Source: Dysgonomonadaceae bacterium zrk40 (GTDB lineage Bacteria > Bacteroidota > Bacteroidia > Bacteroidales > Dysgonomonadaceae). From it: a stretch of DNA of 64,000 nucleotides. Numbering within the stretch: position 1 is the stretch's first letter; each line of letters starts with the position of its first letter. Location of the stretch: contig CP070276.1 in assembly GCA_016916535.1 (NCBI GenBank), positions 1,984,001 through 2,048,000 of the forward strand, written 5' to 3'. Position numbers and translations under genes: made by a program. Positions 2,287 to 40,055 of this stretch are shown in pieces. Under the pieces are notes generated by a model. The model was not told the origin of the DNA. It did no database searches and saw nothing but the letters and a program-made list of their open reading frames with translations.

Positions 2287-2290
2287 ATAG

Positions 2291-4786: not shown

Positions 4787-4798
4787 ATTCTTTAAATA

Positions 4799-5131: not shown

Positions 5132-5141
5132 TTCCTTATTT

Positions 5142-6383: not shown

Positions 6384-6402
6384 CGTTACTATATTTTGTT
6401 GA

Positions 6403-10743: not shown

Positions 10744-10782
10744 TTCATCTAAAATTTATTTGTTTGAATCTTGATTTTATTT

Positions 10783-11250: not shown

Positions 11251-11323
11251 ACTTAAAAGATTAAGTGATTAATATTGCCGATAAAAAATGTGCTATCGGA
11301 TTTATAAGAAAATCTAAAAGAAA

Positions 11324-11722: not shown

Positions 11723-11800
11723 TCTCTTACAGTTTTAAAATGTTGATACAAAGTTATAACGACAAATATACACCAAAGTTCATGCAACCGGGTTGCAAAG

Positions 11801-23012: not shown

Positions 23013-23013
23013 T

Positions 23014-24417: not shown

Positions 24418-24919
24418 GTGTGCGCCCTGCATGAGCAGAGCGCACCTGCTGCAAGCAACAGTAAAATTTCAAAATTACAAATAATTTTGGTTAAACAATG
24501 CTCTAAGCAGGTGTATTTTTCCAGAGGGTGTAAGTCCCTTATGCACGGGGTCGTGCCCGAAGCATTAGCAAGTCGCAAGCTGGTTGTTGGTGACGACAGC
24601 AGTGAAGGAAGCGAGACTGCAAAATCCGGTACTGACGAACAGAAACGGTATATGAGGCATAATTGTCCTGGGTAAGCAACCACATCATTGTAACGCCCAA
24701 AAGGTAGTTTGTGGACAGATATGTAGATACCGCAGGGATTGGAGGAAGGAAAAAGCTCTTACCGGGGGAGATCTCTAAGCAGTAAAATGTAATGAGAAGT
24801 CAGCCGAGGTCATAGTAATTACGGAAAACGAGTGTATATATTAATTAAAAAGTACCCCACATTTCAATTTAAAAGTATACCACTTACAACTATGAATGGA
24901 TTTTATCCGTTCTTAACAA

Positions 24920-26506
24920 ATGATAAGTATGTATACAAAACAGGAAATCATTATTAGCAGCTATCGTGATGGTAAAAGCCAGCGTACTATAGCCCGCGAA
25001 CTGCAGATCAGTCGTAAGACTGTCAATAAGTACATTCAGGAGTATGAAGCAACTTTAGAATCCTCTGATTGCAAAGAGACAGCCGGTGCATTATTTTTAT
25101 CCGGCAATCCAGTCTATAAGATGACTGTACCCCGCGGTAAACTAAAGCTTACAAACGATGTGCAAGAGTTTATAGATAAACTGCTTTCTAAAAACAAAGA
25201 GAAGCTTGAGCAGGGATTGCAAAAGCAGCTGATGAAAAAGAAAGACATCCATGATGCACTGCTTGATCATGGTTTTGATGTAGGATACACCACGCTGTGC
25301 AACTACATAAGGCTTAAAGAGAAGCAGCAGTCATCTAAAGAGGCATATATCCGTCAGGCTTATGCACCTGGTGATATATGTGAATTTGACTGGGGTGAGA
25401 TTAAACTTTTGATTGGTGGTAAACGCACAAGCTTACAACTTGCTGTTTTCACCAGTGCCTACAGTAACTGGCGGTATGCTTTTATCTATAATCGTCAGGA
25501 TACACTCGCGTTTATGGAAGCTCATACACGCTTCTTTGAGAAGATTGGCGGTGTATACCGTGAGATGGTTTATGATAATATGCGGGTTGCAGTAGCAAGG
25601 TTTGCAGGTAATCATGAGAAAGAGCCCACTCGCGCTTTACTGGAGCTTAGAGGTCATTATCAGTTTACTCACCGCTTTACCAACTTCTATCGCGGGAATG
25701 AGAAAGGTCACGTAGAGCGCAGCGTGGAGTACGTGCGCCGTAAAGCCTTTGCTCCCAAAGATGATTTTAACTCTGCCCATGAAGCTCAACGGTGGCTTGA
25801 TTCCACTTTAGAGAGGCTTAACGGGGTTAAACAGCAGGGTACGGGCAAGAGTGCCAATATGCTTCTGGAGGAAGAGAGAAGAGTTCTGGGCAAACATCCG
25901 GTATCAGTGATGATTTGCAGTGAACAGATCCAGCTAAGAGCAGATAAATATGCAACCGTCAGCCATCAGGGCAACCGTTACTCTGTACCCGATCATCTGG
26001 TAGGCCTGTTTGTTGATGTGAGCATCAGAAGCAGAGAGGTATATATCTTCTTTGAAAATAAACGGGTTGCCATTCATTCCCGTAGCTACAAGCCTCATGA
26101 CTGGGTAATTGATATAGAACATTACCTTGGCACATTCAAGAAAAAGCCGGGAGCTCTTGCCGGAAGCAAGGCTCTGGCAGACAATAATTATCTGAGAGAT
26201 CTTTATCTCAACTTCTTCCAGGATGAGCCTCGTGAGTTTATTGAACTGTTATCTTACTGCCGTGAACAGATGGTTAGTGAAGAGAAGCTGGAAGAATCAG
26301 TAAAGCGATTACTTGGCACCTGTGCTGACAATGTTACTGTCGAGAGGCTGCTAGCTCTTATTGGTAACAAGCATCCTGTAACACCAATAACAGAGACCAC
26401 AGATAATATAGCCATTAAAGCTAAAGAACAACTAACCTGGATTACCCAATTAATGCATCAAACAAACAACAATGGACAATATAAATCAGCAAATAGCAGA
26501 ATATAG
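24920..26506 (+). CDS. istA: IS21 transposase IstA
   Basis: A 528-residue transposase. It starts with a helix-turn-helix (SQRTIARELQISRKTVNKYI, about residues 18-37). A DDE/RNase H-like core follows (ICEFDWGEIKLLIGGKRTSL about 155-175; YDNMRVAV near 218; then a conserved Glu near GNEKGHVERSVEYVRRKAF). The C-terminal beta-barrel binds DNA (YSVPDHLVGLFVDV). It overlaps istB by 35 bp in another frame, the usual IS21 layout. An in-frame ATG at 24929 is an alternative start. The frame looks intact. Confidence 0.9.
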   Translation: MISMYTKQEIIISSYRDGKSQRTIARELQISRKTVNKYIQEYEATLESSDCKETAGALFLSGNPVYKMTVPRGKLKLTNDVQEFIDKLLSKNKEKLEQGLQKQLMKKKDIHDALLDHGFDVGYTTLCNYIRLKEKQQSSKEAYIRQAYAPGDICEFDWGEIKLLIGGKRTSLQLAVFTSAYSNWRYAFIYNRQDTLAFMEAHTRFFEKIGGVYREMVYDNMRVAVARFAGNHEKEPTRALLELRGHYQFTHRFTNFYRGNEKGHVERSVEYVRRKAFAPKDDFNSAHEAQRWLDSTLERLNGVKQQGTGKSANMLLEEERRVLGKHPVSVMICSEQIQLRADKYATVSHQGNRYSVPDHLVGLFVDVSIRSREVYIFFENKRVAIHSRSYKPHDWVIDIEHYLGTFKKKPGALAGSKALADNNYLRDLYLNFFQDEPREFIELLSYCREQMVSEEKLEESVKRLLGTCADNVTVERLLALIGNKHPVTPITETTDNIAIKAKEQLTWITQLMHQTNNNGQYKSANSRI

Positions 26507-27227
26507 CAAAGCTCTCAGACTGCCTGTTTTCAGACGAGATTACAAAGAGCTTGCAGCAGAGGCTGCTAAAGAGAGGATCGATTATGAAGAGTACCTTCTA
26601 AGACTCATGGAACGTGAGTGGGAAGTTAAGCAGGAGAACCGTAAAAAAGCTCAGATAAGGAATGCCAGGTTCCCTTCCAAAATGTATCTGACTAACCTTG
26701 AGCGAGATCAATTGCCACAGGGTGCAAAGGAAAAACTGCCTCTGCTTGAAAGACTGGATTTTATAGCATCATCACAAAATGTGATACTATCCGGTAACCC
26801 GGGTACAGGCAAAACACACATAGCGATAGGGATTGGACTTAAAGCCTGTATGCAGGGATACAAAGTATTGTTTACAACCGTACACAGACTACTGACTCAA
26901 TTACGTGAATCGCAGTCCCAAAAGACTTTAAAACAGGTTGAAAATCAATTTGAAAAGTATGATCTGGTAATATGTGATGAGTTTGGATATGTATCTTTCG
27001 ATAAGCAGGGAGCAGAGTTGCTGTTTAATCACCTCTCTTTAAGAGCAGGAAGAAAATCAACCATCATAACAACAAACCTTGGCTTTGACCGGTGGGAAGA
27101 GATCTTTGGAGACCCAGTACTTACAGCTGCTCTTGTAGACAGGCTAACCCACAAAGCACATCTTGTAAATATGAATGGTGAATCGTACAGATTAAAGGAA
27201 ACTAAAAAAATGATGAATGAAAAATGA
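26472..27227 (+). CDS. istB: IS21 helper ATPase IstB
   Basis: A 251-residue AAA+ ATPase of the DnaC/IstB family. It has Walker A GNPGTGKTHIAIGIG near residue 108, Walker B DLVICDEFGYVSF near 165, and a sensor region STIITTNLGFDRWEEIFGD. It assembles on DNA and activates IstA for target selection. The start lies within istA, implying coupled translation. A 44-bp perfect palindrome follows the stop codon. Confidence 0.9.
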   Translation: MDNINQQIAEYSKALRLPVFRRDYKELAAEAAKERIDYEEYLLRLMEREWEVKQENRKKAQIRNARFPSKMYLTNLERDQLPQGAKEKLPLLERLDFIASSQNVILSGNPGTGKTHIAIGIGLKACMQGYKVLFTTVHRLLTQLRESQSQKTLKQVENQFEKYDLVICDEFGYVSFDKQGAELLFNHLSLRAGRKSTIITTNLGFDRWEEIFGDPVLTAALVDRLTHKAHLVNMNGESYRLKETKKMMNEK

Positions 27228-27251
27228 AAATAACAGTCAGAATAAGAACGC

Positions 27252-27295
27252 CTGTTTCCCTGTTGTTGGCGGTACCGCCAACAACAGGGAAACAG
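27252..27295. terminator. 44-bp perfect palindrome downstream of istB
   Basis: Arms CTGTTTCCCTGTTGTTGGCG (27252-27271) and its exact reverse complement (27276-27295) flank GTAC. A hairpin of about 20 bp without an adjacent T-run could stop istB transcription, block readthrough into the intron, or be a small separate insertion. Confidence 0.6.
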
Positions 27296-27507
27296 ACTTG
27301 GAGATTAATTTAAAATGGTATACTTTTGGATTGAAATACCGGTATACTTTTGGGGTGAAATAAACAAACGAGCCGGCAAGTGATAGAAATCCAGAGAGTC
27401 GGAGGTCTCACGAACGTAATGAAGGACTGAACGTTAAGAAGTTTTTAATGCGACATGGATTTTCAGCAATGAAATAGCCTGTAGCAAGCGAAACAGGGCA
27501 AGAGAAG

Positions 27508-28836
27508 ATGATTAAATTAGCAAACAAAAACGAAATGGAATTGATCGAGCAAGTGATTAACCGTCACAACATGATGCGTGCATTGCAACAGGTCAGGCAG
27601 AACAAAGGTTCGGCAGGAGTTGACCGGATGCCTGTAAGCGAACTATACGACCACCTGACAAAGAACAGGGAAAGTATAGGGCAATCATTGTTAAATGGCA
27701 CTTACCTGCCACAACCCATTTTGGGGGTAGAGATACCCAAGGGAAATGGGAAGACACGTCTTTTAGGTGTGCCTACCGTGGTTGACCGAATGCTTCAACA
27801 AGCCGTAGGGCAAGTTTTAGCCAACCGGTTCGAAATGGAATTTGAGGATTACAGTTATGGATTTCGCCCGAATAAGAATGCCCTGCAAGCGGTACTCAAA
27901 GCATTGGAGTATATAAACAATGGTTATCAGGATATAGTAGACATTGACCTGAAGAGCTTCTTTGACGAAGTAGACCACTGCATTTTGCTGCAATTGTTGT
28001 ATCGCAAGGTAAAATGCCCGCTTACGCTGCGTCTTATCCGCAAATGGCTGCGAGCGCCGATTTTAATCAACGGGAAGTTAGTCAAACGCCGAAAAGGAGT
28101 ACCACAGGGCAGTCCGCTGAGCCCGATTCTCTCCAATATCATGTTAGATGAATTGGATAAAGAATTAGACAGACGTGGATTAAAGTCTGTCCGCTATGCT
28201 GACGACTTTAGCATTTATTGCAAAAGCCAATGGCAAGCCCGCAAAACAGGCAACGAGATCTTTCTCTTTCTAAAGAGTAAACTACACCTGCCTATTAATC
28301 GGGAGAAAAGTGGAATCCGTCGCCCCGTAAACTTTTCGCTATTAGGATATGGTTTTGTGCCCACTTACAAAAAGGGGGAAAAAGGCAAATACCAGCTGGT
28401 GGTAAGCGGCAAAGGATGGAAAAACCTGAAACTAAAACTCAAAGCCATCACCCGAAAAACCACACCCGCCAGTTTCGATGAGCGTATCCACAAACTGAAA
28501 GAAGTACAGCGAGGCTGGCTTCAATACTACCGCATGGCAAGTATCCAGGAAAAACTCAAAGATGTGGATGGGTGGGTGCGTAACCGGTTACGTTGCTGTA
28601 TCTGGAAACAATGGAAGAAATCCGAACGAAGACGGAAAAACCTGATACGTTTGGGCGTTGACCTTGAACACGCATACAGCCACAGCCGTAGCCGAATGGG
28701 TACATGGGCGGTCGCCTGTAGCCCTATTTTGAAAACCACCATCACGGTGGAACGTCTGCAACAACGCGGTTACGAACCTATGTTTACTTATTATCAGAAA
28801 ATTGCTCCATTTCTTAACGAACCGCTGTATACGTGA
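27508..28836 (+). CDS. ltrA: Group II intron reverse transcriptase/maturase (copy 2)
   Basis: It is identical in protein sequence (442 residues) to the maturase at 21199-22527, with the same YADDFSIYC catalytic site and GIIM region and no HNH domain. The coding region is intact, so the protein may still serve intron copy 1 in trans, but its own intron RNA is interrupted upstream by the IS21 element. Confidence 0.95.
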   Translation: MIKLANKNEMELIEQVINRHNMMRALQQVRQNKGSAGVDRMPVSELYDHLTKNRESIGQSLLNGTYLPQPILGVEIPKGNGKTRLLGVPTVVDRMLQQAVGQVLANRFEMEFEDYSYGFRPNKNALQAVLKALEYINNGYQDIVDIDLKSFFDEVDHCILLQLLYRKVKCPLTLRLIRKWLRAPILINGKLVKRRKGVPQGSPLSPILSNIMLDELDKELDRRGLKSVRYADDFSIYCKSQWQARKTGNEIFLFLKSKLHLPINREKSGIRRPVNFSLLGYGFVPTYKKGEKGKYQLVVSGKGWKNLKLKLKAITRKTTPASFDERIHKLKEVQRGWLQYYRMASIQEKLKDVDGWVRNRLRCCIWKQWKKSERRRKNLIRLGVDLEHAYSHSRSRMGTWAVACSPILKTTITVERLQQRGYEPMFTYYQKIAPFLNEPLYT

Positions 28837-29187: not shown

Positions 29188-30567
29188 TTAAAAACTATAT
29201 TTCAATTTAAACATAAACATATTATTGTCCTTCAGATTCGAAAACAAATTATCTCCTTTTCCATCAAAAATGGGGATTGATACAGTGATTTCTGAATTAA
29301 TAGTGGCTTTGTATGCAATCTCAGGCATATACACAAGTGCATAATTGTCTTGAATATTATCCCAGTCGGTAACTATAAAACCGCCACCAATGGGAGTAAT
29401 TTTCAGCTTATTATTTAAAAATGTTTTTTCATATCGTAAAAAGAAATAATCGTTTAGATTTTCTCTTGCTCTTTCATGAATAAATCCGTGTAAATATTGA
29501 ACATTAAGATAAGACCCGTCAGAGAAAAAATAATCACCACCAACTACAAATTTAATGTATGGTTTTGTTTTATCTAAGACTAACGAATCCTGGGTAACAG
29601 GAACAGGCGACATTGGGTAAAATGCTGATAAATCATTAGTCATTATAATATCTTTTTCCGGAATAAATGCTGCTGCTTCAGCCCAAACCCCAAATCCTGC
29701 TATGCTTGTTACTAAATCAGCTCCAATTATATGTGTTCTTGCAAACGATAGTTGTGAATTTATATTTATTCCACCAAGCTTATCAACCGGAATAAAAGTG
29801 TTTTTTGTGGCGAAAGGCAAGCCATCATATCCCCAAACATAGCTTAAAGAAAAATTAACCCCTTTAGCAAATCCTTTGAATTTTAAACCTGCCGAAGAAC
29901 TTTCGCCAATATTATATTTTGGCATCATTAACGTATCAGAAACACTTTTTAATACCATTCCATCCGGCAGTTCCATTGTGGAATTCAGGATATTGGCAAA
30001 AATACCAACAGGCATATTTGCAGGCTGGAAAAAAGGGATAAAAACGCCCTGCAAAGAAAAGTCGTTATTAATATAGTAATTCAAGTTGATAGCATCGGAG
30101 CCTCTGCGACGGCCAAAATCAAGAATATCCTCCAAATCCAAAGGATTAAGATTGTCGGTTGGATTCAATTTGTCGGCAGTTCCCCAAACAATACGCTGAC
30201 GACCAATGGTTAAGTCTAAGTTTTTAGTTAGAAAACCATTTAATTGAACGTAAGCTTCCCTGATTTCAAGATTATAAGGGTCAATAATCCCTTTATTATA
30301 AAGGTCAGCTGATGAATTTATATCGGGCAAGCCAATATTGCGTAACCATACCTCGCTATAAAACTTAGAATTTCCAGTTACTCGTTTGTCAAGGTTTAAA
30401 GTCAGACGGTTTTCGTTCCAGGCCCAATCGTTAGGTGATTTAAGTAAAAAACGTTGGTCGGTAAAAAGTTCACCTGACAGTTTGAGGCTGTTTGCTTCCT
30501 GCGCATTGGCAATACCTGAAGTTAAAATGAGTAATACCAATAATTGAAATAGTTTTATTCTTTTCAT
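29188..30567 (-). CDS. DUF1302-like outer-membrane beta-barrel protein
   Basis: A 459-residue protein with a signal peptide (ending IANAQE, about residue 24) and alternating beta-strand pattern to a C-terminal aromatic residue (MFKLKYSF), typical of outer-membrane barrels. Residues about 105-150 contain REAYVQLNG, IGRQRIVWGTADKLNPTDNL and NPLDL, which fit the DUF1302 signature. In Proteobacteria, DUF1302 proteins pair with MMPL/RND-type transporters and LolA-like or DUF1329 proteins. It is the last gene of the lipid module and would be the outer-membrane export or deposition component; that role is inferred. Confidence 0.7.
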   Translation of the reverse strand: MKRIKLFQLLVLLILTSGIANAQEANSLKLSGELFTDQRFLLKSPNDWAWNENRLTLNLDKRVTGNSKFYSEVWLRNIGLPDINSSADLYNKGIIDPYNLEIREAYVQLNGFLTKNLDLTIGRQRIVWGTADKLNPTDNLNPLDLEDILDFGRRRGSDAINLNYYINNDFSLQGVFIPFFQPANMPVGIFANILNSTMELPDGMVLKSVSDTLMMPKYNIGESSSAGLKFKGFAKGVNFSLSYVWGYDGLPFATKNTFIPVDKLGGININSQLSFARTHIIGADLVTSIAGFGVWAEAAAFIPEKDIIMTNDLSAFYPMSPVPVTQDSLVLDKTKPYIKFVVGGDYFFSDGSYLNVQYLHGFIHERARENLNDYFFLRYEKTFLNNKLKITPIGGGFIVTDWDNIQDNYALVYMPEIAYKATINSEITVSIPIFDGKGDNLFSNLKDNNMFMFKLKYSF

Positions 30568-30596
30568 CTGATTGTAATTTAAAGTGATACGTATAT

Positions 30597-31316
30597 TTAT
30601 TGTAAAAGGTCTTTAGTTAATAAAATATTTCTTTTTGTAAAAAGCCCTATCCCAATGAGAATAAAAACAACTCCACCAATAAAAATTGGCCAGTAAAAAT
30701 TTTCGGGATAGTATTGAACAGAAAATTTTAAAATGTCTTTAGCCTGCAGCGACCAAATATCGGCAGCCGAATAATGACTGAGTATAAACCTTATGTAATC
30801 TTGGGTAAATGATATAATTATTATTACAGAGCCTGTTATTAACATTACAAGTTCATGAGCCTTTAAGTGAACCTGTTCATTGCGTGCGGAAAAATAAAGT
30901 ATTAGTAAAGCTAATAAAATCATAAGAAAAGATAGAATTAGTGGGGCTACTACAGGGCCAACCCAGGTTACAGGCAATAGGAATAGAATATCCATTGTCA
31001 TTAAAGATTCTGGCCAGTTTATTAATATTTTCAGGAAGATATAGTAGAAAATATCCCAAACGGCAAAAGAATATAAAAAGTAAGCAAACCTTGTAACAGT
31101 TGATTTGCCTACAAGGATACCAATAGAAAGAAGCATAAGCAAAGAAAAGGCTTCTCTTAGAATTTCTGTTGTTGCAAGCACCCTTTCGATAGGCTGTAAA
31201 GGGAAAGCAAATCCATTGGGATATATAATTTCCCTTAGGTAAATTACAATTGCACTTTCGAAAAAGCCCATCGAAACAGCAAAAACTGTTATCCAAATTA
31301 TTGTTTTTAGTTTCAT
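30597..31316 (-). CDS. Polytopic inner-membrane protein of unknown function
   Basis: A 239-residue protein with about seven hydrophobic segments and no recognised motif beyond MGFFESAIVIYLREIIYPNG near the N-terminus, which places charged residues inside an otherwise hydrophobic helix. It lies between the DUF1302-like gene (29 bp) and a GT2 gene (19 bp). A flippase or membrane-bound lipid enzyme would suit the context, but nothing in the sequence shows it. Confidence 0.6.
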   Translation of the reverse strand: MKLKTIIWITVFAVSMGFFESAIVIYLREIIYPNGFAFPLQPIERVLATTEILREAFSLLMLLSIGILVGKSTVTRFAYFLYSFAVWDIFYYIFLKILINWPESLMTMDILFLLPVTWVGPVVAPLILSFLMILLALLILYFSARNEQVHLKAHELVMLITGSVIIIISFTQDYIRFILSHYSAADIWSLQAKDILKFSVQYYPENFYWPIFIGGVVFILIGIGLFTKRNILLTKDLLQ

Positions 31317-31335
31317 CCTAAATAGTTTTAGCTTG

Positions 31336-32004
31336 TCATTTTCTAAAAAGATGTTTCAATATCTGATAATTTATAATCAGCGTATAAATTATTTCTTTAG
31401 CTTCAAATAGAAAATGTTTCGTTGCTTTAACAAAGGTTGTTTTTTTATATTTAATGGGATGCTTTAATCCCTCGAGATAAACTAAAGTAACTTTCTTTTT
31501 TCTCGATTTGTAGTATATGTTGATTAAGGTTTCTACCCCAAACCTGGATCCCTTCATTTTATCCAGAATAGGCAAAAGATCAAGCCTTAGTAATGCTCTT
31601 TCGCCCGTAAATGATTTGAACGGGTTTAATTTTGTATGTATTGCTGTTTCCGTTGGCTGTCCCAATACCATATCGGCCTCATTTTTGAATATTGGTGTTA
31701 TTAATTGAGCCAAATGTTCTTCCTGTAAATTTGATAAATCAGCATCAACAAAAACAATTATATCACCGCTAGCATTCTCAATGCCTTTTGCCATTGCGTA
31801 GCCTTTCCCTTTATTTTCAGGAAGGAGAACGTACTTAATATTGTGTAAGCCGAATAGTTCAGTTAAAATCGCATCCGTTCTATCGGTTGAACCGTCATTA
31901 ACAACAATAACCTCGTCAAAAAAGTAATCGCATACGGTGGTTACTACTTCTTTGATTGTTTTCTCCTCGTTGTAAACACAAATTATGGCCGAAATTTTAC
32001 TCAT
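31336..32004 (-). CDS. Family 2 glycosyltransferase, second of a tandem pair
   Basis: A 222-residue GT-A fold enzyme: nucleotide-binding start SAIICVYNEEKTIKEVV, VVNDGSTD, and the metal-binding DADLS motif near residue 92. There is no C-terminal membrane helix, unlike DPM1-type enzymes, though ENKGKGYAMAKG is typical of that group. It overlaps the preceding GT2 gene by 4 bp. The two share motif order and many blocks (for example GERAL, LPILDKMK/IPILDKMK, SRFGVETL), so they arose by duplication. The sugar and acceptor are unknown; a lipid acceptor is inferred from the operon. Confidence 0.85.
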   Translation of the reverse strand: MSKISAIICVYNEEKTIKEVVTTVCDYFFDEVIVVNDGSTDRTDAILTELFGLHNIKYVLLPENKGKGYAMAKGIENASGDIIVFVDADLSNLQEEHLAQLITPIFKNEADMVLGQPTETAIHTKLNPFKSFTGERALLRLDLLPILDKMKGSRFGVETLINIYYKSRKKKVTLVYLEGLKHPIKYKKTTFVKATKHFLFEAKEIIYTLIINYQILKHLFRK

Positions 32005-32705
32005 TGTTTCACTCTTTTAGAAATTTGTTTTTCTACAGATTTTAGTAAAAGCTCATAATTCTTAAAGGCTGTATAGGCTATTTCAAAGCCTTCGTTAATA
32101 TAGCCTGTTGTTGCCTTAAACGCCTTAAACGAAGACATTTTTTTGTACTTATCCTTATGTGTCATCCCTTTTAACCTGATAAATTTTATGGACTTGCCAA
32201 TCGATATGTAATAAAAATACAATAGAGTTTCTACACCAAAACGTGACTCCTTCATTTTATCAAGAATTGGTATAATATCTTCTTTGTATAAAGCTCTTTC
32301 ACCTGTTAATATTTTTAAAGGATTTACATCCTGGCTTAAAATATTTACAGTAGAATAGCCTAAAACCATGTCCGATTCTTCTTTTAATAAAGGGTTGGTT
32401 AATTGATTAATGTATCCCTGAATAATGTTCGACTGGTCGGCATCAACAAATAGCATAATATCAAAGGTTGAATTTTCAACTCCCACCGCCATGGCGTATC
32501 CTTTCCCTTTGTTTTCTGTAAAATGGATTGCCGTTATCTCAATCTCTTTCTGCAGCTCCTCAATTATTTTCTTAGTATTATCCGAAGACCCATCATTAAC
32601 TACAATAATCTCACTAACAATTAAAGATTCTGAAACTGAAAGGATGACATCTTTTAGCGTTTTCTCCTCGTTATATGCACATATTATTGCCGATACTTTT
32701 TTCAT
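32001..32705 (-). CDS. Family 2 glycosyltransferase, first of a tandem pair
   Basis: A 234-residue GT2 enzyme: SAIICAYNEEKTLKDVI, VVNDGSSDNT, the metal site FVDADQSN, and the GERALY/SRFGVETLLYFYYI blocks shared with the next gene. It lacks a signal peptide and clear transmembrane helices, so it should act at the cytoplasmic face of the inner membrane. It lies 15 bp after the acyltransferase gene. The C-terminal 35 residues are basic (EKQISKRVKQ), perhaps for membrane contact. Confidence 0.85.
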   Translation of the reverse strand: MKKVSAIICAYNEEKTLKDVILSVSESLIVSEIIVVNDGSSDNTKKIIEELQKEIEITAIHFTENKGKGYAMAVGVENSTFDIMLFVDADQSNIIQGYINQLTNPLLKEESDMVLGYSTVNILSQDVNPLKILTGERALYKEDIIPILDKMKESRFGVETLLYFYYISIGKSIKFIRLKGMTHKDKYKKMSSFKAFKATTGYINEGFEIAYTAFKNYELLLKSVEKQISKRVKQ

Positions 32706-32720
32706 ATTGCATTTTTTAAG

Positions 32721-33527
32721 TTATAGACCTGTTTTTTTTACAAATTGTGACCAATCGTGGTGAGACCTTGATATATCGAAGGTGCTGTATGAAATGGGCT
32801 TGCCTATTTTAACCCTGATGGTTTTATTTCGTTTGTTAAATAGTTCATGAGGCAATAGAACTAATTCCAAGGTTTTACTTATTCCAAAAGTTTTCCGGGC
32901 TATGTATATAAAATAAAAAAGAAGTGAATTTCGCCCGTAGAAATAAAATGGAACAACGTTACGCTGATACGCAACTGCTTTCTTAATAAACCCTTTTTGC
33001 CAGTCACTATCCTCAACTTTTCCTTTTTTAATCCTCGAAACAAGACCAGCGGGGAAATGAGTAATAGGGATATCAGACTTAAATTGTTTCTCCAATTCTA
33101 AAATATACTCCCTTGGATTTGTTCCAAAAACATTTACCGCAGCAATATTCTCTTTTAAATGAGGAATAAGCATAAATACGTTGTTGCCGATAGCCTTAAA
33201 ATCACCGTATTTGTTAGCAACTGTGCTTGTTAAAATTAAGCCATCAACAAATCCAAAAGGGTGATTTGCCACAAAAAAGCATTTGCCATTGTCGGGTAAA
33301 TTCTCAATTCCTTCAAGTTCTACTTTTATGTTTAGCTCCTTAATTATTTTAGGCAAAAAATCAACCCCTTCGTAATCAGCGTAAGCAGATAGAATTCTAT
33401 TTATCTCATTTTGCCTGATAATTAGCTTAATCAGGTAAATCACAAAGTCGGGCAACCGTTTAAGAAGTTTCGAATCACTTGCTTTAATGAGCTTATGAAT
33501 ATTGATATATTCTTTTGATAAATCCAT
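32721..33527 (-). CDS. PlsC-like acyltransferase (larger of two)
   Basis: A 268-residue acyltransferase of the glycerol/lysophospholipid type. The HX4D-type motif appears as NHPFGFVDG near residue 90, followed by a conserved substrate-binding region with HFPAGLVSRIKKGKVEDSDW (the FP-x-G block). It probably moves an acyl chain from ACP or CoA to a hydroxyl on a lipid or glycolipid. It is 4 bp downstream of the patatin gene (33532). Confidence 0.8.
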   Translation of the reverse strand: MDLSKEYINIHKLIKASDSKLLKRLPDFVIYLIKLIIRQNEINRILSAYADYEGVDFLPKIIKELNIKVELEGIENLPDNGKCFFVANHPFGFVDGLILTSTVANKYGDFKAIGNNVFMLIPHLKENIAAVNVFGTNPREYILELEKQFKSDIPITHFPAGLVSRIKKGKVEDSDWQKGFIKKAVAYQRNVVPFYFYGRNSLLFYFIYIARKTFGISKTLELVLLPHELFNKRNKTIRVKIGKPISYSTFDISRSHHDWSQFVKKTGL

Positions 33528-33531
33528 TCCC

Positions 33532-34389
33532 TTATAGGTTTTTATAATAATAATTTATTGCCTCTTTTGCTGCACTTTCCCCTAACTGTATCAATTCTTT
33601 TGCCTTGTAAAAATCAAAGGTATTTGCCGAATCGTATGGTATATTAATTATCATATCGGGTTTATGTTTCTCGATGCTCATTTTTGCAATCTTATGTATC
33701 ATTGCCGATGTCGTACTGCTTAAAAGTGAGTAATACCCTGTACTGTACTTGTCACCAGTTAAGATTAAGGTCGATATGGTGTTCATCAACCTATTTAAAT
33801 ATCCGTTATTAGTATTTGTTTCTTTTGGAATATCAGTTTTTTTGTCACCGTAAAGATTCACTACTATCAGCATATCTCCATTCTTACGGGACACGTATTC
33901 AATAGGAATTGGATTAAGAACGCCACCGTCAACAAGAATGGTATCAGTGTATTTTACCGGCGTAAAAACTGCCGGAATTGCAACGGATGCACGGGCAGCT
34001 TCATAAAAGCTTCCTTTTGTAAAAACCACTTCTTTTTCGTGGAGTATATCAGTAGCAACGGCAGCAAAGGGGATGGGCATATCTTCAATATTCATATCAG
34101 GGATAAAAGTTTTCATTTTATCAAAAACCCGCTCACCTTTTAATAAGCCATTTGTTGCAAGCGTAAAATCCATAAAGCCCCATACATCCCTTTTGTTAAA
34201 GGTGCTTACCCACTTGGTATATTCTGGTATTTTACCTATGGCATAAACGCCGCCAATAACCGACCCGATAGAAGAACCTGAAATAGAAGATATTTGAAAA
34301 CCCAGCCGCTCTAATTCATTTATAACGCCTATATGAGCAAGCCCCTTTGAGCCACCACTTGATAGTACTAGTGCTACATTCTGTTTCAT
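33532..34389 (-). CDS. Patatin-like phospholipase (RssA type)
   Basis: A 285-residue patatin domain: oxyanion motif SSGGSKGLAHIGV (residues 10-22), nucleophile Ser in GSSIG near residue 40, and catalytic Asp in DGGVLNPIP near 172. Such enzymes release fatty acids from lipids. In this operon it could trim or remodel the product, or act as a transacylase. It begins 3 bp after the small acyltransferase gene. No signal peptide, so it is cytoplasmic or peripheral. Confidence 0.85.
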   Translation of the reverse strand: MKQNVALVLSSGGSKGLAHIGVINELERLGFQISSISGSSIGSVIGGVYAIGKIPEYTKWVSTFNKRDVWGFMDFTLATNGLLKGERVFDKMKTFIPDMNIEDMPIPFAAVATDILHEKEVVFTKGSFYEAARASVAIPAVFTPVKYTDTILVDGGVLNPIPIEYVSRKNGDMLIVVNLYGDKKTDIPKETNTNNGYLNRLMNTISTLILTGDKYSTGYYSLLSSTTSAMIHKIAKMSIEKHKPDMIINIPYDSANTFDFYKAKELIQLGESAAKEAINYYYKNL

Positions 34390-34392
34390 ATT

Positions 34393-34935
34393 TTATACTT
34401 TTAGTTCAGGTGAAAAATTTTCAGGATATTTTGCTGAAACATCAGAATACAATTGAGCAATCTCTTTTCTTACTATACTAATATCTGTTGGGTTATAAAT
34501 CACTTTTTTAATTCCGATTTCTTTCTTCTTATAATCAATGTATCCAACAACAATGGGGACATTTGCTCGTACAGCCATATAGTAATACCCTTTTTTCCAT
34601 CGTATTGTTTTTGCCAATTGCCCTTCCGGAGACAACACGATATGAAGTTCTTGGCTAATATTAATTAATTCAGCAACATAATCAATGTACTCCTTGGTTT
34701 TACTCACGGGTATAGAACCAAAAATCTTAAAGAAATAGTTTAATGGAAATTTGAAAAATTCTTTTTTTGATAGAAATTTGTAATTTATACCTAACTGCAT
34801 TAAATATAGTTTTCCATAAAATCCATCCCAGTAGCTAGTGTGTGGGGCAAATATGATGATGCTTCTTTTGATGTTTGGAAATTCGCCTTTGATTTTCCAA
34901 CCTAATAAATATTTCAATATAAAACCAGAAATCAT
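34393..34935 (-). CDS. 1-acyl-glycerol-3-phosphate acyltransferase-like protein
   Basis: A 180-residue short PlsC-like enzyme: HTSYWDGFYGK (the HX4D catalytic motif, residues about 32-42), GSIPVSKTKEY, and SPEGQLAKTIRWKKGYYYMA, which corresponds to the FPEGTR block. This layout resembles the short 1-acyl-sn-glycerol-3-phosphate acyltransferases of bacteria. The gene sits 6 bp after the ACP-like gene, so direct use of ACP-bound acyl chains would be natural if that protein were functional. Confidence 0.8.
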   Translation of the reverse strand: MISGFILKYLLGWKIKGEFPNIKRSIIIFAPHTSYWDGFYGKLYLMQLGINYKFLSKKEFFKFPLNYFFKIFGSIPVSKTKEYIDYVAELINISQELHIVLSPEGQLAKTIRWKKGYYYMAVRANVPIVVGYIDYKKKEIGIKKVIYNPTDISIVRKEIAQLYSDVSAKYPENFSPELKV

Positions 34936-34941
34936 TATTTT

Positions 34942-35166
34942 TTAAATTAATCTTTTGATATACGAAATCAAATCACCAACAGTCTTAATTTCATGAAACA
35001 TATCATAATCAATTGTTATTTTTAGTTTATTTTCTAAATTCATAAACAATTCGGCTAAATCAAGATTGTCGAATTGTAAATCATCTTCAAACGAGTAATC
35101 AATTTTTATATCAGATACTTTGATATCGGATAAATCACTAATACTTTCAATTATTATTTTTTCCAT
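34942..35166 (-). CDS. Acyl-carrier-protein-like protein with Asn in place of the phosphopantetheine Ser
   Basis: A 74-residue acidic four-helix protein with the ACP layout. The family motif GxDSLdxvEl reads FDNLDLAEL here; the codon for residue 34 is AAT (Asn), where AGT or AGC would give the modified Ser. The helix 2 recognition region (LAELFMNLENKL) is otherwise well kept, so it should still dock to ACP partners. Unless the base is a sequencing error or the protein works non-catalytically, it cannot carry a 4'-phosphopantetheine arm. It lies between the FabH-like synthase (167 bp gap, nothing seen) and a short acyltransferase. Confidence 0.75.
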   Translation of the reverse strand: MEKIIIESISDLSDIKVSDIKIDYSFEDDLQFDNLDLAELFMNLENKLKITIDYDMFHEIKTVGDLISYIKRLI

Positions 35167-35333
35167 AAAAAAATGTGTATTCTAAAACAATACTCCGTTG
35201 ACCTTTTTTAAATGCCTGTTAGTGAGTAATTTGCACAGTGCGCAATGTTTATCACAACTCTCTGATAATAAAAACTTTGCGCCATTGCGTCTTTGCGTTT
35301 AGATTTTTTTCAACGAACTATTGCTAAAATAAA

Positions 35334-36281
35334 TTATAATTTTTTCAATAAAACGGCACCACTTGAATAACCACCACCGAAAACCGATATAACGATTGTG
35401 TCATTTTGTTTGAATCTATCCCAGTTTTGAGATAAAACAATGGGGGTACTTGCAGAACCTGTATTTCCTAAATATTCTATATTTGTTAATAGTTGAGATG
35501 GTTTTAATTTCAATTTTTCAGCAACATAATCGGTAATTCGTTTATTTGCCTGGTGTGGAATTAAGTAGTTCAATTGGCTGATAGGAATGTCATTTTTGTG
35601 TAAAATTTGCTCTGTTTCCTGTATCATATAAGTACACGCATATTGAAAAACGTCTTTTCCAAAAGGCATTTTTATACCTCCATTACCAGGTCTTAGGTAA
35701 ACGCCTTCTATACTTTTGCCAATGTTGCCTAAGCCAGTGGTATTTATATCAATCACTTCAATGTCTTCATCTGAATGTCTTTCATTTGATAAAACCACTG
35801 CTGCTGCACCATCGCCCCATAAAAAACCCGAATTCTTGTCAGAATCATCGTTATATGCACTATTGTTTTCTGAAACAATAATTAATGCTTTGCTTGCTTT
35901 ATTATTTGCAAAATAACATTCGACTATTTCAAGAGCATTTACAAATGAAGAACAGGCGGAATCAACGGTAAAACATTTAGCATTAGCAATATTGAATTGA
36001 TTTTGTACTGCATGAGCCAATGTGCCAACTGTATCATAAGGTGTGTAGGTTGCACCGATTATTAAATCAATTTCATCTAAGGATAGAGGCGATTCGAAAT
36101 AGGCCTTTTTAACGGCTTCAATCGCCATTGAATTTGTATTTTCTTCGGGACGAGTTCTTCGTCTTTGCTTAATTCCGCATTTGGAAATTATTTCTTCATC
36201 AGAAATACCATAATTATCAGTGAAAAACGCGTTAGGGACTATAATGTCCGGTTTATAAGAATTCGCATAATTGATTATCAT
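35334..36281 (-). CDS. FabH-like 3-ketoacyl-ACP synthase III
   Basis: A 315-residue thiolase-fold enzyme with the KASIII triad: Cys110 (FTVDSACSSF), His243 (YLIPHQANKRIT) and Asn273 (EYLGNTGSASTP). N-terminal KQRRRTRPEENTNSMA corresponds to the FabH substrate-entry region. It condenses an acyl thioester with malonyl-ACP or catalyses a related transfer. It is not the primary-metabolism fabH by context: it heads a minus-strand run of ACP-like, acyltransferase, patatin, glycosyltransferase and membrane genes. The promoter region between it and the terminator at 36360 is full of AT palindromes. Confidence 0.85.
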   Translation of the reverse strand: MIINYANSYKPDIIVPNAFFTDNYGISDEEIISKCGIKQRRRTRPEENTNSMAIEAVKKAYFESPLSLDEIDLIIGATYTPYDTVGTLAHAVQNQFNIANAKCFTVDSACSSFVNALEIVECYFANNKASKALIIVSENNSAYNDDSDKNSGFLWGDGAAAVVLSNERHSDEDIEVIDINTTGLGNIGKSIEGVYLRPGNGGIKMPFGKDVFQYACTYMIQETEQILHKNDIPISQLNYLIPHQANKRITDYVAEKLKLKPSQLLTNIEYLGNTGSASTPIVLSQNWDRFKQNDTIVISVFGGGYSSGAVLLKKL

Positions 36282-36306
36282 ATCATGAAGTTTATTTTTG
36301 TATTAT

Positions 36307-36353
36307 GTTATAAATTTGCGTTTTATAACATTTTTAACATATATATATGTTAA
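36307..36353. promoter_or_regulatory. Two AT-rich palindromes upstream of the fabH-like gene
   Basis: GTTATAAA/TTTATAAC arms at 36307-36314 and 36322-36329, and a 20-bp perfect palindrome TTAACATATATATATGTTAA at 36334-36353. They lie 26-72 bp before the fabH-like start, between it and the terminator of the upstream unit, so they are candidates for operators. No clear TAnnTTTG box was found. Confidence 0.4.
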
Positions 36354-36359
36354 AAAATC

Positions 36360-36387
36360 AGCACATTAACTATTAAATTAATGTGCT
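36360..36387 (-). terminator. Intrinsic terminator after the lolA-like gene
   Basis: On the minus strand AGCACATTAA and TTAATGTGCT (36378-36387 with 36360-36369) form a 10-bp perfect stem with an eight-base loop, followed by GATTTTTTAAC. It lies 12 bp beyond the lolA-like stop codon and should separate the TetR-MMPL-LolA unit from the fabH unit. Confidence 0.8.
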
Positions 36388-36398
36388 AATCAAAATTT

Positions 36399-37136
36399 TT
36401 ATTGTTTCAATTTTCTAACGGTAAAGTCATCGTCTGTTAACCCCGTGTCGTATTCCACATCCGACATTTGCATTTTAGTTTTGTGATTTTTCTTCAAGTC
36501 GGTCATTTCAATTTCTGAGGCATTCCAATAGTTGCCAATCTTTTTGAAAGTATATTTGGCTTCTTTTATTTTATTATTACCCTTGTTGTAGTATTCCATA
36601 GATTCTGGGTAATAATTTGTTTTATTAACACGTACAATTACTTTCGAATAATCCGATTTACCACTTATAGGAGTTAATTCCAAAACAAATACATTGCCTT
36701 CTGTTTTTGCTAATTTTGGGGTGTACTTTACCGAGAATGGTACAGATTCCATATCGTCATAAGAAAAATCGGTGCCTGCAAAGTTTTGATTTTTAGCGCT
36801 GGAAGCAATTCTTCTTTCTCTGCCAAAAGCCGGTAAATACAAATACATTACATCATTAGGAAGTGATAAAATGGCGATGCCTTCCTGTGATGCGGGTGCA
36901 GTAAAACGAAACATTCGTTTATCGGTTCCTTTCTGCTGAATGGTCGCTTCACGGATTTCTTTGTTGCCATTTTTATCAATCAGGATAATTGTATTTTTCC
37001 CTGTCATGTCTTTGGGGGCATACATTACATCGTCCATTTTTTCCAAAATAGTTGTTGCATCTTGTGCATTTGCAGAAATTATACTGCTTACTCCGATTAA
37101 TACAGTTAATACTGCTGTTCTAAATGTTGATTTCAT
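36399..37136 (-). CDS. LolA-like outer-membrane lipoprotein-sorting family protein (PF17131 type)
   Basis: A 245-residue secreted protein with signal peptide (ending SANAQDA). It is followed by a LolA/LppX-like half-barrel: TTILEKMDDVMYAPKDMTGK, FTAPASQEGIAILSLPNDVM, then MYLYLPAFGRERRI. Members of this group occur next to MMPL transporters and are thought to carry lipids across the periplasm. It is 18 bp after the MMPL gene, consistent with a handover partner for it. Confidence 0.85.
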   Translation of the reverse strand: MKSTFRTAVLTVLIGVSSIISANAQDATTILEKMDDVMYAPKDMTGKNTIILIDKNGNKEIREATIQQKGTDKRMFRFTAPASQEGIAILSLPNDVMYLYLPAFGRERRIASSAKNQNFAGTDFSYDDMESVPFSVKYTPKLAKTEGNVFVLELTPISGKSDYSKVIVRVNKTNYYPESMEYYNKGNNKIKEAKYTFKKIGNYWNASEIEMTDLKKNHKTKMQMSDVEYDTGLTDDDFTVRKLKQ

Positions 37137-37154
37137 AATTATAAGTTTTAAATG

Positions 37155-39413
37155 TTAATGATTATTTGCTATTATTTTATGTTTTCTGTTTGCCAGTATA
37201 AGAATAGCAGGCAGCAGTGATAGCGCACTAAACCCGGAACCAATCATACTAATGCCAATCAGTAGTCCGAAATTTTGTAAGGGTACGATTTGAGAAAACA
37301 GAAGCACTAAAAATCCTGCTAAAACCGATACTACATTAATTATTATTGCCTTGCCGCTCAATAAAATAACGCTTTCGATTGATTTTTCGGCATCTCCGTT
37401 TTCCAGCAGATGATTATTAAATCCGGTGATAATATGGATAGAATAATCAATGCCTATACCCAAAGCAATACTGCCTACCAATACGGTTGCTATATCGAGC
37501 GGAATTCCGGTTATTCCCATTATTCCTAACAGGACAATAATCGTTGCAACCACGGGAATTGCGGCAAAAACTCCTTTAGAAGCAGACCTCAAAATCGCGC
37601 TAACAATCAATATAACCAGTGCAATAGCAATTAACAAACTGTTGCGCTGGCTGTTTAATAAGCTGCTATTGAGCTTATCGTAAACGGATGGCATACCTGT
37701 AAGCTCTATTTGGCAATATTCATTTTGGTTTTCTTCAATAAAACGGTTCATTTTTTTAGTAAATGCTTCAATGTTTTTAGTATCAACTGAGGCAAATTTT
37801 GATTGAATTACTCCTTTGGTAAGGTCGTTATTAACCAGTTGCGGCATCACATCCTGTCCATCAAGCAGGAACCATAATTGCTCAATTTTTGCCTTTTCAC
37901 CGGGTATTTTTTCCCCTTCGCCCATGGCATCGTTCATTTGTTCAATAAGGTCGGCCACCGATTGGGTTATGTCAATACTTGGGTCTTCTTCCATAAAACG
38001 TTGCGTTTCAATCATCTTTTGTAGAACTTCAGGACTTTGCATATCGCCTTTAAAAACAACGAATATGGGTAATGACCCACCAAATTTTTTCTGCATTACA
38101 TCTTCTGCCACCCGGGTAGGATTATCTTTTTTAAAATAATCTGCCATGTTTACACTGGTTTCAATTTGAAAAATCCCGATAACACTTACCAGAAGAATTA
38201 ATGCCCATGCAGTAATAGTATATTTAGGATGTTTAAAAAGTGTTTTAGTTAGCGGTAATAATATTTTATGGGTTAAGACCGTTTTCTTTTCTGTATTTTC
38301 AGCAGGTTTTTTCTTTCGATACGTTGACAAAGCTGAAATCAGAGCCGGCACAAAGAATATGGACAACAACAAGGCGATGAATGTACCGACTGCTGTGAAT
38401 ATCCCAAAGTCCTTAATCATTGTAAGGTATGCGCCAAAAACGAACGAAACAAAACCTGTTGCAGTCGTGACTGCTGCCAATATGACCGGAATGATAATAT
38501 ATGCAACCCCCTTGATTAATGCTTGTATTCTGTCCTGAAGGGCCATGTGGTTAATACTGTTCAGCACATGAATGGTATAGGCACTGCCCACCGCAAGTAG
38601 TACAACCGGTATGATATTTGATATAATGGTAAGCTCATAGCCTGCAACAGACATTATTCCCAAAGTCCAGACTACAGAAATCCCGGCAACCAGCAACGGC
38701 AATAATACGCCGCGAAACGATTTAAAACTAATCCAAAGAATAATTGCTATAACAAGAAAAACAATGGGTATCAACCAAATTATATCGGATATTATTAAAT
38801 CGTTAATATCGTTCATCATCATTGGGAGCCCGCCAAAGTATAGTGTTTCCGGCAGGTCCATATTTTCAATCTTCTCCTTTATTTCTTTTGCAATAGTTTG
38901 ATTATCTGCATCCGGAAGCAGGGTGAACATGATTGCCGTCGCCTTACAGTCATCGGAAACAATTACCCCCCGGTACATGTCTTTTGACAGAACATAAGCT
39001 TTAAGGCTGTCTAAGTCAGATGGGTCTGTCGGTAATTCATATTCATCAACCAGCTTTCCTATTTCAATCCCCCAATCGGAGCTTTTAATATCAAGTATAT
39101 TCGTTAAACTTGTTACGGTAGAAACGCCTCGCGTGTATTTAATACTATCAGTAATTTGTTTAACATGTTTAATAACCTCTGCATTAAAAACATCTTTAGT
39201 TTCTAACACAATCATGCCCATATCATTTCCGGCAAATTCCGTTCCTATATCTTTATAGAGTTTGGCAGTCGGGTCATCATCGGGTAAAGAATCAATAATA
39301 TCAGGATTTATAGGCAAGTTTCTTAGTTGATAACCCAAAAAAACGGTTAATACCACAACAACTGAAATTATCAGCCATTTTAGTCTGATTATTAATTTTA
39401 CAAATTTGTTCAT
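37155..39413 (-). CDS. MMPL/RND-superfamily lipid exporter
   Basis: A 752-residue transporter built as two similar halves. TM1 is at about residues 12-30, a periplasmic loop reaches to about 200, TM2-6 span about 205-355, TM7 is near 395, a second loop follows, and TM8-12 span about 605-740. Acidic residues typical of proton relays lie in IALGIGIDYSIHIITG (second half). MMPL-type pumps move lipids, hopanoids or glycolipids. Between a TetR regulator and a LolA-like carrier, it is probably the inner-membrane exporter of the product made by the downstream genes. Confidence 0.9.
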   Translation of the reverse strand: MNKFVKLIIRLKWLIISVVVVLTVFLGYQLRNLPINPDIIDSLPDDDPTAKLYKDIGTEFAGNDMGMIVLETKDVFNAEVIKHVKQITDSIKYTRGVSTVTSLTNILDIKSSDWGIEIGKLVDEYELPTDPSDLDSLKAYVLSKDMYRGVIVSDDCKATAIMFTLLPDADNQTIAKEIKEKIENMDLPETLYFGGLPMMMNDINDLIISDIIWLIPIVFLVIAIILWISFKSFRGVLLPLLVAGISVVWTLGIMSVAGYELTIISNIIPVVLLAVGSAYTIHVLNSINHMALQDRIQALIKGVAYIIIPVILAAVTTATGFVSFVFGAYLTMIKDFGIFTAVGTFIALLLSIFFVPALISALSTYRKKKPAENTEKKTVLTHKILLPLTKTLFKHPKYTITAWALILLVSVIGIFQIETSVNMADYFKKDNPTRVAEDVMQKKFGGSLPIFVVFKGDMQSPEVLQKMIETQRFMEEDPSIDITQSVADLIEQMNDAMGEGEKIPGEKAKIEQLWFLLDGQDVMPQLVNNDLTKGVIQSKFASVDTKNIEAFTKKMNRFIEENQNEYCQIELTGMPSVYDKLNSSLLNSQRNSLLIAIALVILIVSAILRSASKGVFAAIPVVATIIVLLGIMGITGIPLDIATVLVGSIALGIGIDYSIHIITGFNNHLLENGDAEKSIESVILLSGKAIIINVVSVLAGFLVLLFSQIVPLQNFGLLIGISMIGSGFSALSLLPAILILANRKHKIIANNH

Positions 39414-39473
39414 GTTTTAATTTATTATTATTTACACTAGTATCGTTTTATAGTCAGTTTTGATTAAAAAAAA

Positions 39474-40055
39474 TCAGGTGGCTAAACCTTTATTCAATAT
39501 GTTTATTAATCCATCAAAGTAAGGTGAATATTTCTCGTACTTATTTTGTAGAAAGAATGGTATTTCAAGACCTTTCAGAACCATTAAAAACATATCCAGC
39601 AAAACGTCAATATCTGTAACTAAAGTAAACTCGCCTGTATTAACACCTTGAAGAATGATTTTCTTCAGGTTTTCTTTTTCCCAGGTATCTAAATCAGCTC
39701 TCAGGTCGTCTATAAAGTGGAAATGTTCAAAAAAATCGGCTCTTAGCGTTTCATGGTAACTTGCTGCTGAATTAAGGATTTCCATTCTTTTGACAAGATA
39801 GCTATGCAACTTTTGAGAAGCATCCAAATCAGAATTGTTAGCAATAACTCCCAACTGGCTTTTAAGGTTAGTAATTTCCTTTAAGATTACTTCTCTGAAT
39901 AAATCCTCTTTACTCGCAAAATGGTAGTATAACGAGCCTTTTGCTTTACGTGCATTTTTTGCTATTTCGTCCATAGAGGTTTTGTGAAACCCGAACCGGC
40001 TAAACAGTTGGTTTGCAACTCTCAATATTGAATCTTTAGTAGTATCTATGCTCAT
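39474..40055 (-). CDS. TetR-family regulator of the lipid module
   Basis: A 193-residue TetR-type repressor. N-terminal helix-turn-helix: ILRVANQLFSRFGFHKTSMD then EIAKNARKAKGSLYYHFASK (about residues 10-50). The C-terminal ligand-binding part is all-helical and not assignable to a ligand. It is the first gene of the minus-strand run and lies 60 bp before the MMPL gene. An inverted repeat overlaps its predicted promoter, which suggests autoregulation by a lipid-like or acyl ligand; the ligand is speculation. Confidence 0.85.
   Translation of the reverse strand: MSIDTTKDSILRVANQLFSRFGFHKTSMDEIAKNARKAKGSLYYHFASKEDLFREVILKEITNLKSQLGVIANNSDLDASQKLHSYLVKRMEILNSAASYHETLRADFFEHFHFIDDLRADLDTWEKENLKKIILQGVNTGEFTLVTDIDVLLDMFLMVLKGLEIPFFLQNKYEKYSPYFDGLINILNKGLAT

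What the first reader, a model, noticed from the sequence alone, without database searches (positions are those of the whole stretch)
29188..40055. Complete-looking lipid or glycolipid synthesis and export module on an integrated element
Twelve consecutive minus-strand genes: TetR, MMPL exporter, LolA-like carrier, terminator, then FabH-like KASIII, ACP-like protein, short PlsC, patatin, second PlsC, two GT2 enzymes, a seven-helix membrane protein and a DUF1302-like outer-membrane barrel. Gaps are a few bases or 4-bp overlaps. The parts cover acyl synthesis, acyl transfer, glycosylation, inner-membrane export, periplasmic transfer and an outer-membrane end-point. MMPL, LolA-like and DUF1302 proteins are known to associate; the combination with tandem GT2 genes and an ACP-like protein is one I cannot match to a described pathway. 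The product is inferred to be an acylated glycolipid.
Basis: partly seen in the sequence, partly recalled or inferred. Interest (0 to 1): 0.85.

Follow-up and report, generated by a model that had tools for sequence, protein, structure and literature searches.

The report
Swappable lipid-making and export gene cluster
A Bacteroidales bacterium carries an acquired set of twelve genes that probably builds an unusual membrane lipid and ships it to the outer membrane; related bacteria keep the same export genes but swap the lipid-making genes, and this set includes an "acyl carrier" protein that has lost the residue it needs to carry anything.

Summary
The twelve genes are there as described. They belong to a recurring kind of locus. 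The constant part is a TetR-MMPL-LolA-outer-membrane-protein export unit: its LolA occurs in 61 of 393 Bacteroidales genomes. In the closer relatives a variable set of lipid enzymes sits inside the unit: patatin, PlsC, a GlsA-like acyltransferase, GT2, KASIII, and in one sister locus a complete-looking sphingolipid set led by serine palmitoyltransferase. Homology blocks begin and end at gene borders, at up to 95% DNA identity to other genera, so the locus is acquired and mosaic. The exact window gene order was found nowhere else; the closest relative has all but the ACP. The ACP-like protein has Asn where the phosphopantetheine Ser belongs. Close homologues (47-53% identical) occur in only three other sampled genomes, all three also lack the Ser (Tyr, Asp, Asn), and all sit in the same kind of cluster, directly before an MMPL gene. 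AcpM bound to MmpL5 is a precedent for an ACP as transporter partner. Best reading: synthesis and export of a specialised, O-acylated and probably glycosylated outer-membrane lipid; product unknown. No described cluster with this content was found in the papers searched.

The parts
39474..40055 (-). TetR-type regulator, first gene of the unit
   Evidence: PF00440 62.7 bits; first gene in most sister loci
37155..39413 (-). MMPL/HAE3-type RND transporter, 752 aa
   Evidence: two PF03176 domains 148.4 bits; best NCBIfam TIGR00921 HAE3 290 bits, below its 351.9 cut-off; nearest solved relatives HpnN and MmpL3
36399..37136 (-). LolA-like periplasmic carrier with signal peptide
   Evidence: PF17131 169.1 bits; 61/393 Bacteroidales genomes have a homologue at E<=1e-40
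36282..36398 (-). 117-nt gap with three hairpins, the first a terminator-like stem followed by a U run
   Evidence: fold z -7.6 for the gap, -6.7 for the first hairpin; about 90 nt of it absent in L029
35334..36281 (-). FabH-like KASIII; Cys, His and Asn active-site motifs present in the sequence
   Evidence: PF08541/PF08545; PRK09352 237.8 bits against cut-off 249
34942..35166 (-). ACP-like protein without the phosphopantetheine Ser (DNL instead of DSL)
   Evidence: PF00550 33 bits; alignments; four loci only, all in clusters
34932..35331 (-). about 400-nt segment carrying the ACP gene; L026, L028 and L029 have 16 nt at this place
   Evidence: blastn block map
34393..34935 (-). short PlsC-type acyltransferase (HX4D motif HTSYWD)
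   Evidence: PF01553 39.3 bits; paralogue of a core Bacteroidales enzyme
33532..34389 (-). patatin-like acyl hydrolase (GSSIG, DGG)
   Evidence: PF01734 103.2 bits; in 17 of 44 frame loci against 1 of 65 control loci
32721..33527 (-). GlsA-like O-acyltransferase
   Evidence: PF19576 168.4 bits; NF053697 260.1 vs 260; the genome has another, stronger PF19576 member at C1:1012407
32001..32705 (-). small GT2 glycosyltransferase a
   Evidence: PF00535 84.9 bits
31336..32004 (-). small GT2 glycosyltransferase b
   Evidence: PF00535 112.9 bits
30597..31316 (-). polytopic membrane protein of unassigned family, six long helices predicted, invariant charged residues
   Evidence: 63-sequence alignment; AlphaFold2 pLDDT 91
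29188..30567 (-). DUF1302-like outer-membrane protein; signal peptide and C-terminal Phe read from the sequence
   Evidence: PF06980 30.7 bits; last gene of the unit in minimal and cassette loci; structure model failed

Best explanation
The locus is a horizontally acquired, TetR-controlled unit that makes and exports a specialised outer-membrane lipid. Export frame: the MMPL transporter takes the lipid from the inner membrane, the LolA-like protein carries it across the periplasm, and the DUF1302-like protein receives it at the outer membrane. Cargo enzymes between LolA and the OMP build or tailor it: KASIII makes or extends an acyl precursor, PlsC and the GlsA-like enzyme add acyl chains, patatin trims or recycles acyl chains, two GT2 enzymes add sugars, and the membrane protein performs an unknown membrane step. 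The likely product is an O-acylated, probably glycosylated lipid of amino-acid or sphingoid type rather than an ordinary phospholipid. Shown here: gene content, recurrence, modular exchange, foreign origin, loss of the ACP Ser. Inferred: every enzymatic and transport step, and the product.
For: Domains. A frame TetR-MMPL-LolA-OMP stands alone in many Bacteroidales, and the lipid enzymes lie within it in the closer relatives: 21 of 44 frame loci carry lipid enzymes (patatin 17, GT2a 11, PlsC 9, GlsA 6), against 1 patatin hit (and 1 CDP-alcohol transferase, 1 GtrA) in 65 control loci. A sister locus, L028, has serine palmitoyltransferase, a KDSR-like reductase, a GNAT enzyme and a CDP-alcohol transferase in the same slot; its Anaerophaga SPT homologue scores 669.5 vs cut-off 640. 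The GlsA-like enzyme points to O-acylation of an amino-acid-type lipid. A LolA tree needs about 7 gains/losses of the cassette, at least 3 forced by well-supported branches. DNA blocks of high identity (up to 95%) to other genera start and end at gene borders. GC of the cluster genes is 23-38% against 43.9% for the window.
Against: No product is known. No biosynthetic gene is constant across sister loci. Minimal four-gene units export something without any cassette, so the exporter may not be specific for the cassette's product. The ACP cannot act as a normal carrier. Anaerophaga keeps synthesis genes without MMPL, LolA and OMP. Counts of PlsC and 7TM are biased because some loci were found with those queries.
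Confidence: 0.6

Rival explanations
1. The locus tailors and exports a sphingolipid whose ceramide backbone is made by the genome's own serine palmitoyltransferase elsewhere: the cluster enzymes add acyl and sugar groups and the exporter moves the finished lipid to the outer membrane.
For: The genome has an SPT at C1:1424733; sister loci L028, L025 and L026 carry SPT, KDSR-like, GNAT and CDP-alcohol transferase genes between patatin or TetR and the 7TM gene; sphingolipids reach the outer membrane in bacteria (PMC11087976, PMC8791184).
Against: The window cluster itself has no sphingolipid gene; the GlsA-type enzyme and KASIII fit other lipids as well; most sister loci have no SPT.
Confidence: 0.22
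2. The four-gene frame is an efflux system for toxic hydrophobic compounds under TetR control, and the lipid enzymes remodel membrane phospholipids in the same stress response; no new lipid is exported.
For: MMPL scores best to the hydrophobe/amphiphile efflux-3 model; TetR regulators often control efflux pumps (own knowledge); minimal units without lipid enzymes are common; patatin plus acyltransferases could remodel existing lipids.
Against: LolA-like carrier plus outer-membrane protein fit lipid transfer better than a tripartite pump; GT2, KASIII and SPT-type cassettes point to synthesis of a product; cassette genes concentrate in these loci.
Confidence: 0.15
3. It is an aryl-polyene/flexirubin-type pigment cluster, which also uses MMPL, LolA-like, GT2 and acyltransferase genes.
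For: Shared export and tailoring gene types (own knowledge of such clusters; nothing adds to it).
Against: No KASII/chain-length-factor ketosynthases, dehydratase, adenylating enzyme or ammonia lyase among the twelve genes; the only ketosynthase is FabH-like and the ACP has no carrier Ser.
Confidence: 0.03

Closest known systems
MMPL/RND lipid exporters: hopanoid transporter HpnN, sterol transporter BstA, trehalose monomycolate exporter MmpL3
   Same: inner-membrane RND transporter of the MMPL family for lipids; HpnN (6wu0, with the related 5khn) and MmpL3 are the nearest solved structures
   Different: 752 aa HAE3-like type, far below the HpnN, BstA and MmpL3 equivalog cut-offs; paired with LolA-like and DUF1302-like genes
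MmpL5-AcpM complex of mycobacteria (PMC11633376)
   Same: an acyl carrier protein bound to the cytosolic side of an MMPL transporter; acidic helix-II residues of the ACP are kept here (E39 and E45 invariant)
   Different: AcpM is a working carrier that co-purified; here the gene is in the cluster and lacks the Ser; binding not tested
Bacteroides glycine-lipid synthesis (GlsB-GlsA)
   Same: the GlsA-like O-acyltransferase just reaches the curated GlsA cut-off
   Different: no GlsB-type N-acyltransferase in the cluster; a stronger PF19576 member lies elsewhere in the genome
Bacterial sphingolipid synthesis (Spt, bCerS, CerR; Bacteroides BT0870, BT_0972, BT1522-1526)
   Same: sister clusters carry SPT, KDSR-like, GNAT and CDP-alcohol transferase genes in the same frame
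   Different: none of these is in the window cluster
Aryl-polyene/flexirubin clusters
   Same: MMPL, LolA-like, GT2 and acyltransferase genes together (own knowledge)
   Different: no polyketide-type ketosynthase set, activation or dehydration genes

Membership tests
Acyl carrier protein | PP-binding fold by sequence | tested here: met
   PF00550 33.0 bits vs cut-off 20.8; ACP structures are the best PDB hits of the four-member profile
Acyl carrier protein | Ser for 4'-phosphopantetheine in the DSL motif | tested here: not met
   Asn in the window, Tyr, Asp and Asn in the three homologues; the canonical ACPs of the same genomes keep DSL
GlsA lyso-glycine-lipid O-acyltransferase | NF053697 curated cut-off of 260 bits | tested here: met
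   260.1 bits, marginal
GlsB-GlsA glycine lipid operon | adjacent GlsB N-acyltransferase | tested here: not met
   no such gene among the twelve
FabH equivalent | curated cut-offs of TIGR00747 (292.1) and PRK09352 (249) | tested here: not met
   206.0 and 237.8 bits: FabH-like, not assigned as FabH
HAE3-type MMPL transporter | two MMPL domains; TIGR00921 cut-off of 351.9 | tested here: inconclusive
   two domains met; 290.1 bits is the best model but below the cut-off
DUF1302 outer-membrane protein | Pfam gathering score | tested here: met
   30.7 vs 23.2 bits
DUF1302 outer-membrane protein | beta-barrel fold | tested here: inconclusive
   AlphaFold2 model pLDDT 34, unusable
Bacterial sphingolipid cluster | serine palmitoyltransferase in the cluster | tested here: not met
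   absent in the window cluster, present in sister loci L025, L026, L028 and elsewhere in the genome
Aryl-polyene/flexirubin cluster | KS/chain-length-factor, dehydratase and activating enzyme | tested here: not met
   not among the Pfam hits of the cluster

The most novel reading that the evidence does not exclude
The ACP-like protein is a dedicated non-carrier: a Ser-less ACP that serves as a cytosolic docking or regulatory subunit of the MMPL exporter (or of KASIII), coupling lipid synthesis to export, in a Bacteroidales locus type with a fixed export frame and exchangeable lipid-synthesis cargo.
Probability: 0.3. Interest if true: 0.8.

Novelty: new variant of a known kind. Interest (0 to 1): 0.6.

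Why it matters
If right, Bacteroidales have a transferable system for putting different specialised lipids on their surface, with one export frame and many synthetic cargos. Bacteroidota surface lipids act on immune cells and on membrane stability, so a locus that swaps lipid chemistry by horizontal transfer would be a route to lipid diversity. The Ser-less ACP next to an MMPL gene would make a direct test possible of whether ACPs act as structural partners of MMPL transporters, which in the work read here rests on AcpM co-purifying with MmpL5.

Tried and rejected
Using the membrane-protein gene as a marker for the cluster: most of its homologues (about 38-55% identical) sit alone or beside unrelated genes, so it is a general membrane family recruited here. 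PlsC as a marker: 271 of 393 genomes carry a homologue, but only some of the top 25 or so hits are cluster-type. OMP structure: the nine-sequence alignment gave an unusable model, and no PDB sequence match at E<=1. Fold search with the membrane-protein model: no Foldseek match at E<=0.001; VIA best Z 8.2 over 94 residues, in the range of chance for helical proteins. Empty-site search through the neighbouring DUF3137 gene: only five genomes of the genus have it and the one close match lies at a contig end. Papers: searches for MMPL with LolA/DUF1302, MMPL with sphingolipid or patatin in Bacteroidetes, and Ser-less ACPs gave no described cluster or family; most subscription journals are not held, so this is not proof of absence. 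The idea that the ACP is a decaying pseudogene was considered less likely because four homologues from four families, about 50% identical, keep an open frame and 23 invariant columns.

Full report
What is there. The twelve minus-strand genes are confirmed at 29188-40055, with domain support for eleven. Gaps run from -4 to 167 nt. The last eight genes (ACP to OMP) are tightly packed; the two wide gaps flank KASIII. The gap between LolA and KASIII holds a strong terminator-like hairpin. The window lies in a 3.47 Mb genome. Genus neighbours that carry the cluster are deposited as uncultured Proteiniphilum OKU4 and Porphyromonadaceae UBA12175, so the genus is probably Proteiniphilum (inference).

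Foreign origin and mosaic structure. Only 2 of 36 other genomes of the genus gave a close match (89-92%) to the membrane-protein gene (a third gave a weak 34% match), while Anaerophaga, which belongs to another family (own knowledge), has the gene at 92%. For comparison the genome's own serine palmitoyltransferase is only 62% identical to that of Anaerophaga (this is the best genome copy against a cluster-borne copy, so a rough yardstick). Cluster genes have 23-38% GC against 43.9% for the window. Blastn blocks show two long segments with sharp ends at gene borders: TetR-MMPL-LolA (40136-36397) and membrane protein-OMP (31316-29186), at about 79-95% identity in L027-L030. Between them gene content changes from genome to genome. 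The window alone has about 400 nt with the ACP gene where L026, L028 and L029 have 16 nt.

Recurrence. The LolA-like protein has homologues at E<=1e-40 in 61 of 393 sampled Bacteroidales genomes, 41 of 207 genera, but in only 5 of 395 genomes sampled from the class. Neighbourhoods of these loci show a minimal unit TetR-MMPL-LolA-OMP, for example L183, L184, L190, L191, L196-L198 and L201-L203. In closer relatives lipid enzymes are inserted: L143 TetR-MMPL-LolA-MT-PlsC-Pat-GT2-OMP; L144 TetR-GNAT-SDR-PlsC-MMPL-LolA-Pat-GT2-OMP; L155 TetR-MMPL-LolA-ACP-KASIII-MT-PlsC-GT2-OMP; L185 TetR-MMPL-GlsA-LolA-Pat-LysE-GT2-OMP; L028 MMPL-rSAM-LolA-KASIII-PlsC-Pat-CDP-alcohol transferase-SPT-KDSR-GNAT-7TM-OMP. 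In a set of 44 frame loci, 21 carry lipid enzymes, with patatin in 17, against 1 patatin in 65 control loci of larger total length. Some of these loci were found with PlsC or 7TM queries, which biases the counts for those two genes. A LolA tree groups the cassette loci far better than shuffled labels (7 changes against 16.4) but not as one clade, so cassettes were gained or lost several times.

The ACP. The protein aligns well to ACPs but has Asn in place of the Ser that carries phosphopantetheine. A profile of this type (three sequences) separates sharply: the four members score 75-143 bits, the ordinary ACPs of the same 30 genomes 48 bits or less. Over 393 Bacteroidales genomes only four have it, from four families, and all four lie in this kind of cluster: the window (KASIII-ACP-PlsC), L254 (TetR-KASIII-ACP-MMPL-GlsA), L150 (MMPL-ACP-MMPL), L152 (ACP-MMPL-rSAM-LolA). 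At the Ser position they have Asn, Asn, Tyr and Asp. L152 has no KASIII within the 19.5 kb fetched, while an MMPL gene is present in all four loci and immediately downstream in three, so MMPL is the more constant neighbour. Ordinary ACPs with the Ser occur in other clusters, overlapping or adjoining KASIII (L032, L155). A cytosolic ACP bound to an MMPL transporter is known from MmpL5-AcpM (PMC11633376). I propose, without a binding test, that the Ser-less ACP is a docking or regulatory part. A decoy for KASIII or an acyltransferase is equally untested.

Mechanism and product. The GlsA-like enzyme just reaches the curated GlsA cut-off, while a stronger family member sits elsewhere in the genome. 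KASIII is FabH-like but below FabH cut-offs. SPT-type cassettes in the same slot of sister loci show that the frame is used with sphingolipid chemistry elsewhere. This favours a specialised O-acylated, probably glycosylated lipid, exported by MMPL, LolA-like carrier and outer-membrane protein. All enzymatic and transport steps are inferred from families. The rivals are tailoring of the host's own sphingolipids, and an efflux and membrane-remodelling response.

Other parts. The membrane protein folds confidently (pLDDT 91), has 22 invariant residues over 63 sequences including E20, R28, E51, R54, E55, D88 and D109, and no clear structural relative turned up in the PDB (a weak match list does not show that the fold is new). 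The outer-membrane protein model failed, probably for lack of sequences.

Novelty. No described cluster with this content was found in the papers searched, with the caveat that much literature is not held. I rate it a new variant of a known kind, an MMPL-type lipid export locus, with one unusual component.

Noticed in passing
window 30597-31316 and loci L025-L104: Uncharacterised membrane protein family, widespread in Bacteroidota and present in contigs binned to other phyla, with many invariant charged residues; often beside ribosomal-protein genes, DgkA-like or other small membrane protein genes rather than this cluster.
   Followed up: partly
window 20815-22524 and 24584-28836: Two group II introns with reverse transcriptases of the same length and start (442 aa); the second appears split by an IS21-type element (24920-27227) between intron domain and RT gene.
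   Followed up: partly
window 22611-24258: A small TIR-like protein (22611-23012) next to a TPR-S sensor-domain protein (23014-24258), an arrangement that recalls conflict/defence systems.
   Followed up: no
window 1495-12214: Cluster that looks like metal efflux (P-type ATPase, CusA-like RND, CusB-like, cation-diffusion-type protein, Fur-like regulator); L018 has copper efflux genes directly after its lipid cluster.
   Followed up: no
L027:6733-7413: The single GT2 gene of Proteiniphilum OKU4 looks recombinant: 92-95% identical to window GT2a over the first 120 nt, then in most later stretches closer to GT2b; the rest of the cassette is missing there.
   Followed up: partly
L025 and L026: Two Anaerophaga strains keep the sphingolipid-type cassette and membrane protein but lack MMPL, LolA and OMP; in one the TetR frame is broken and only the end of KASIII remains.
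   Followed up: no
window 35275-35298: Motif ACGCAAAGACGCAATGGCGCAAAG just upstream of the ACP gene, inside the inserted segment; the only copy in the window.
   Followed up: no
L034: GT2-membrane protein-OMP part of the cluster at 67-73% identity in a contig binned as Candidatus Neomarinimicrobiota; cross-phylum transfer or misbinning.
   Followed up: no
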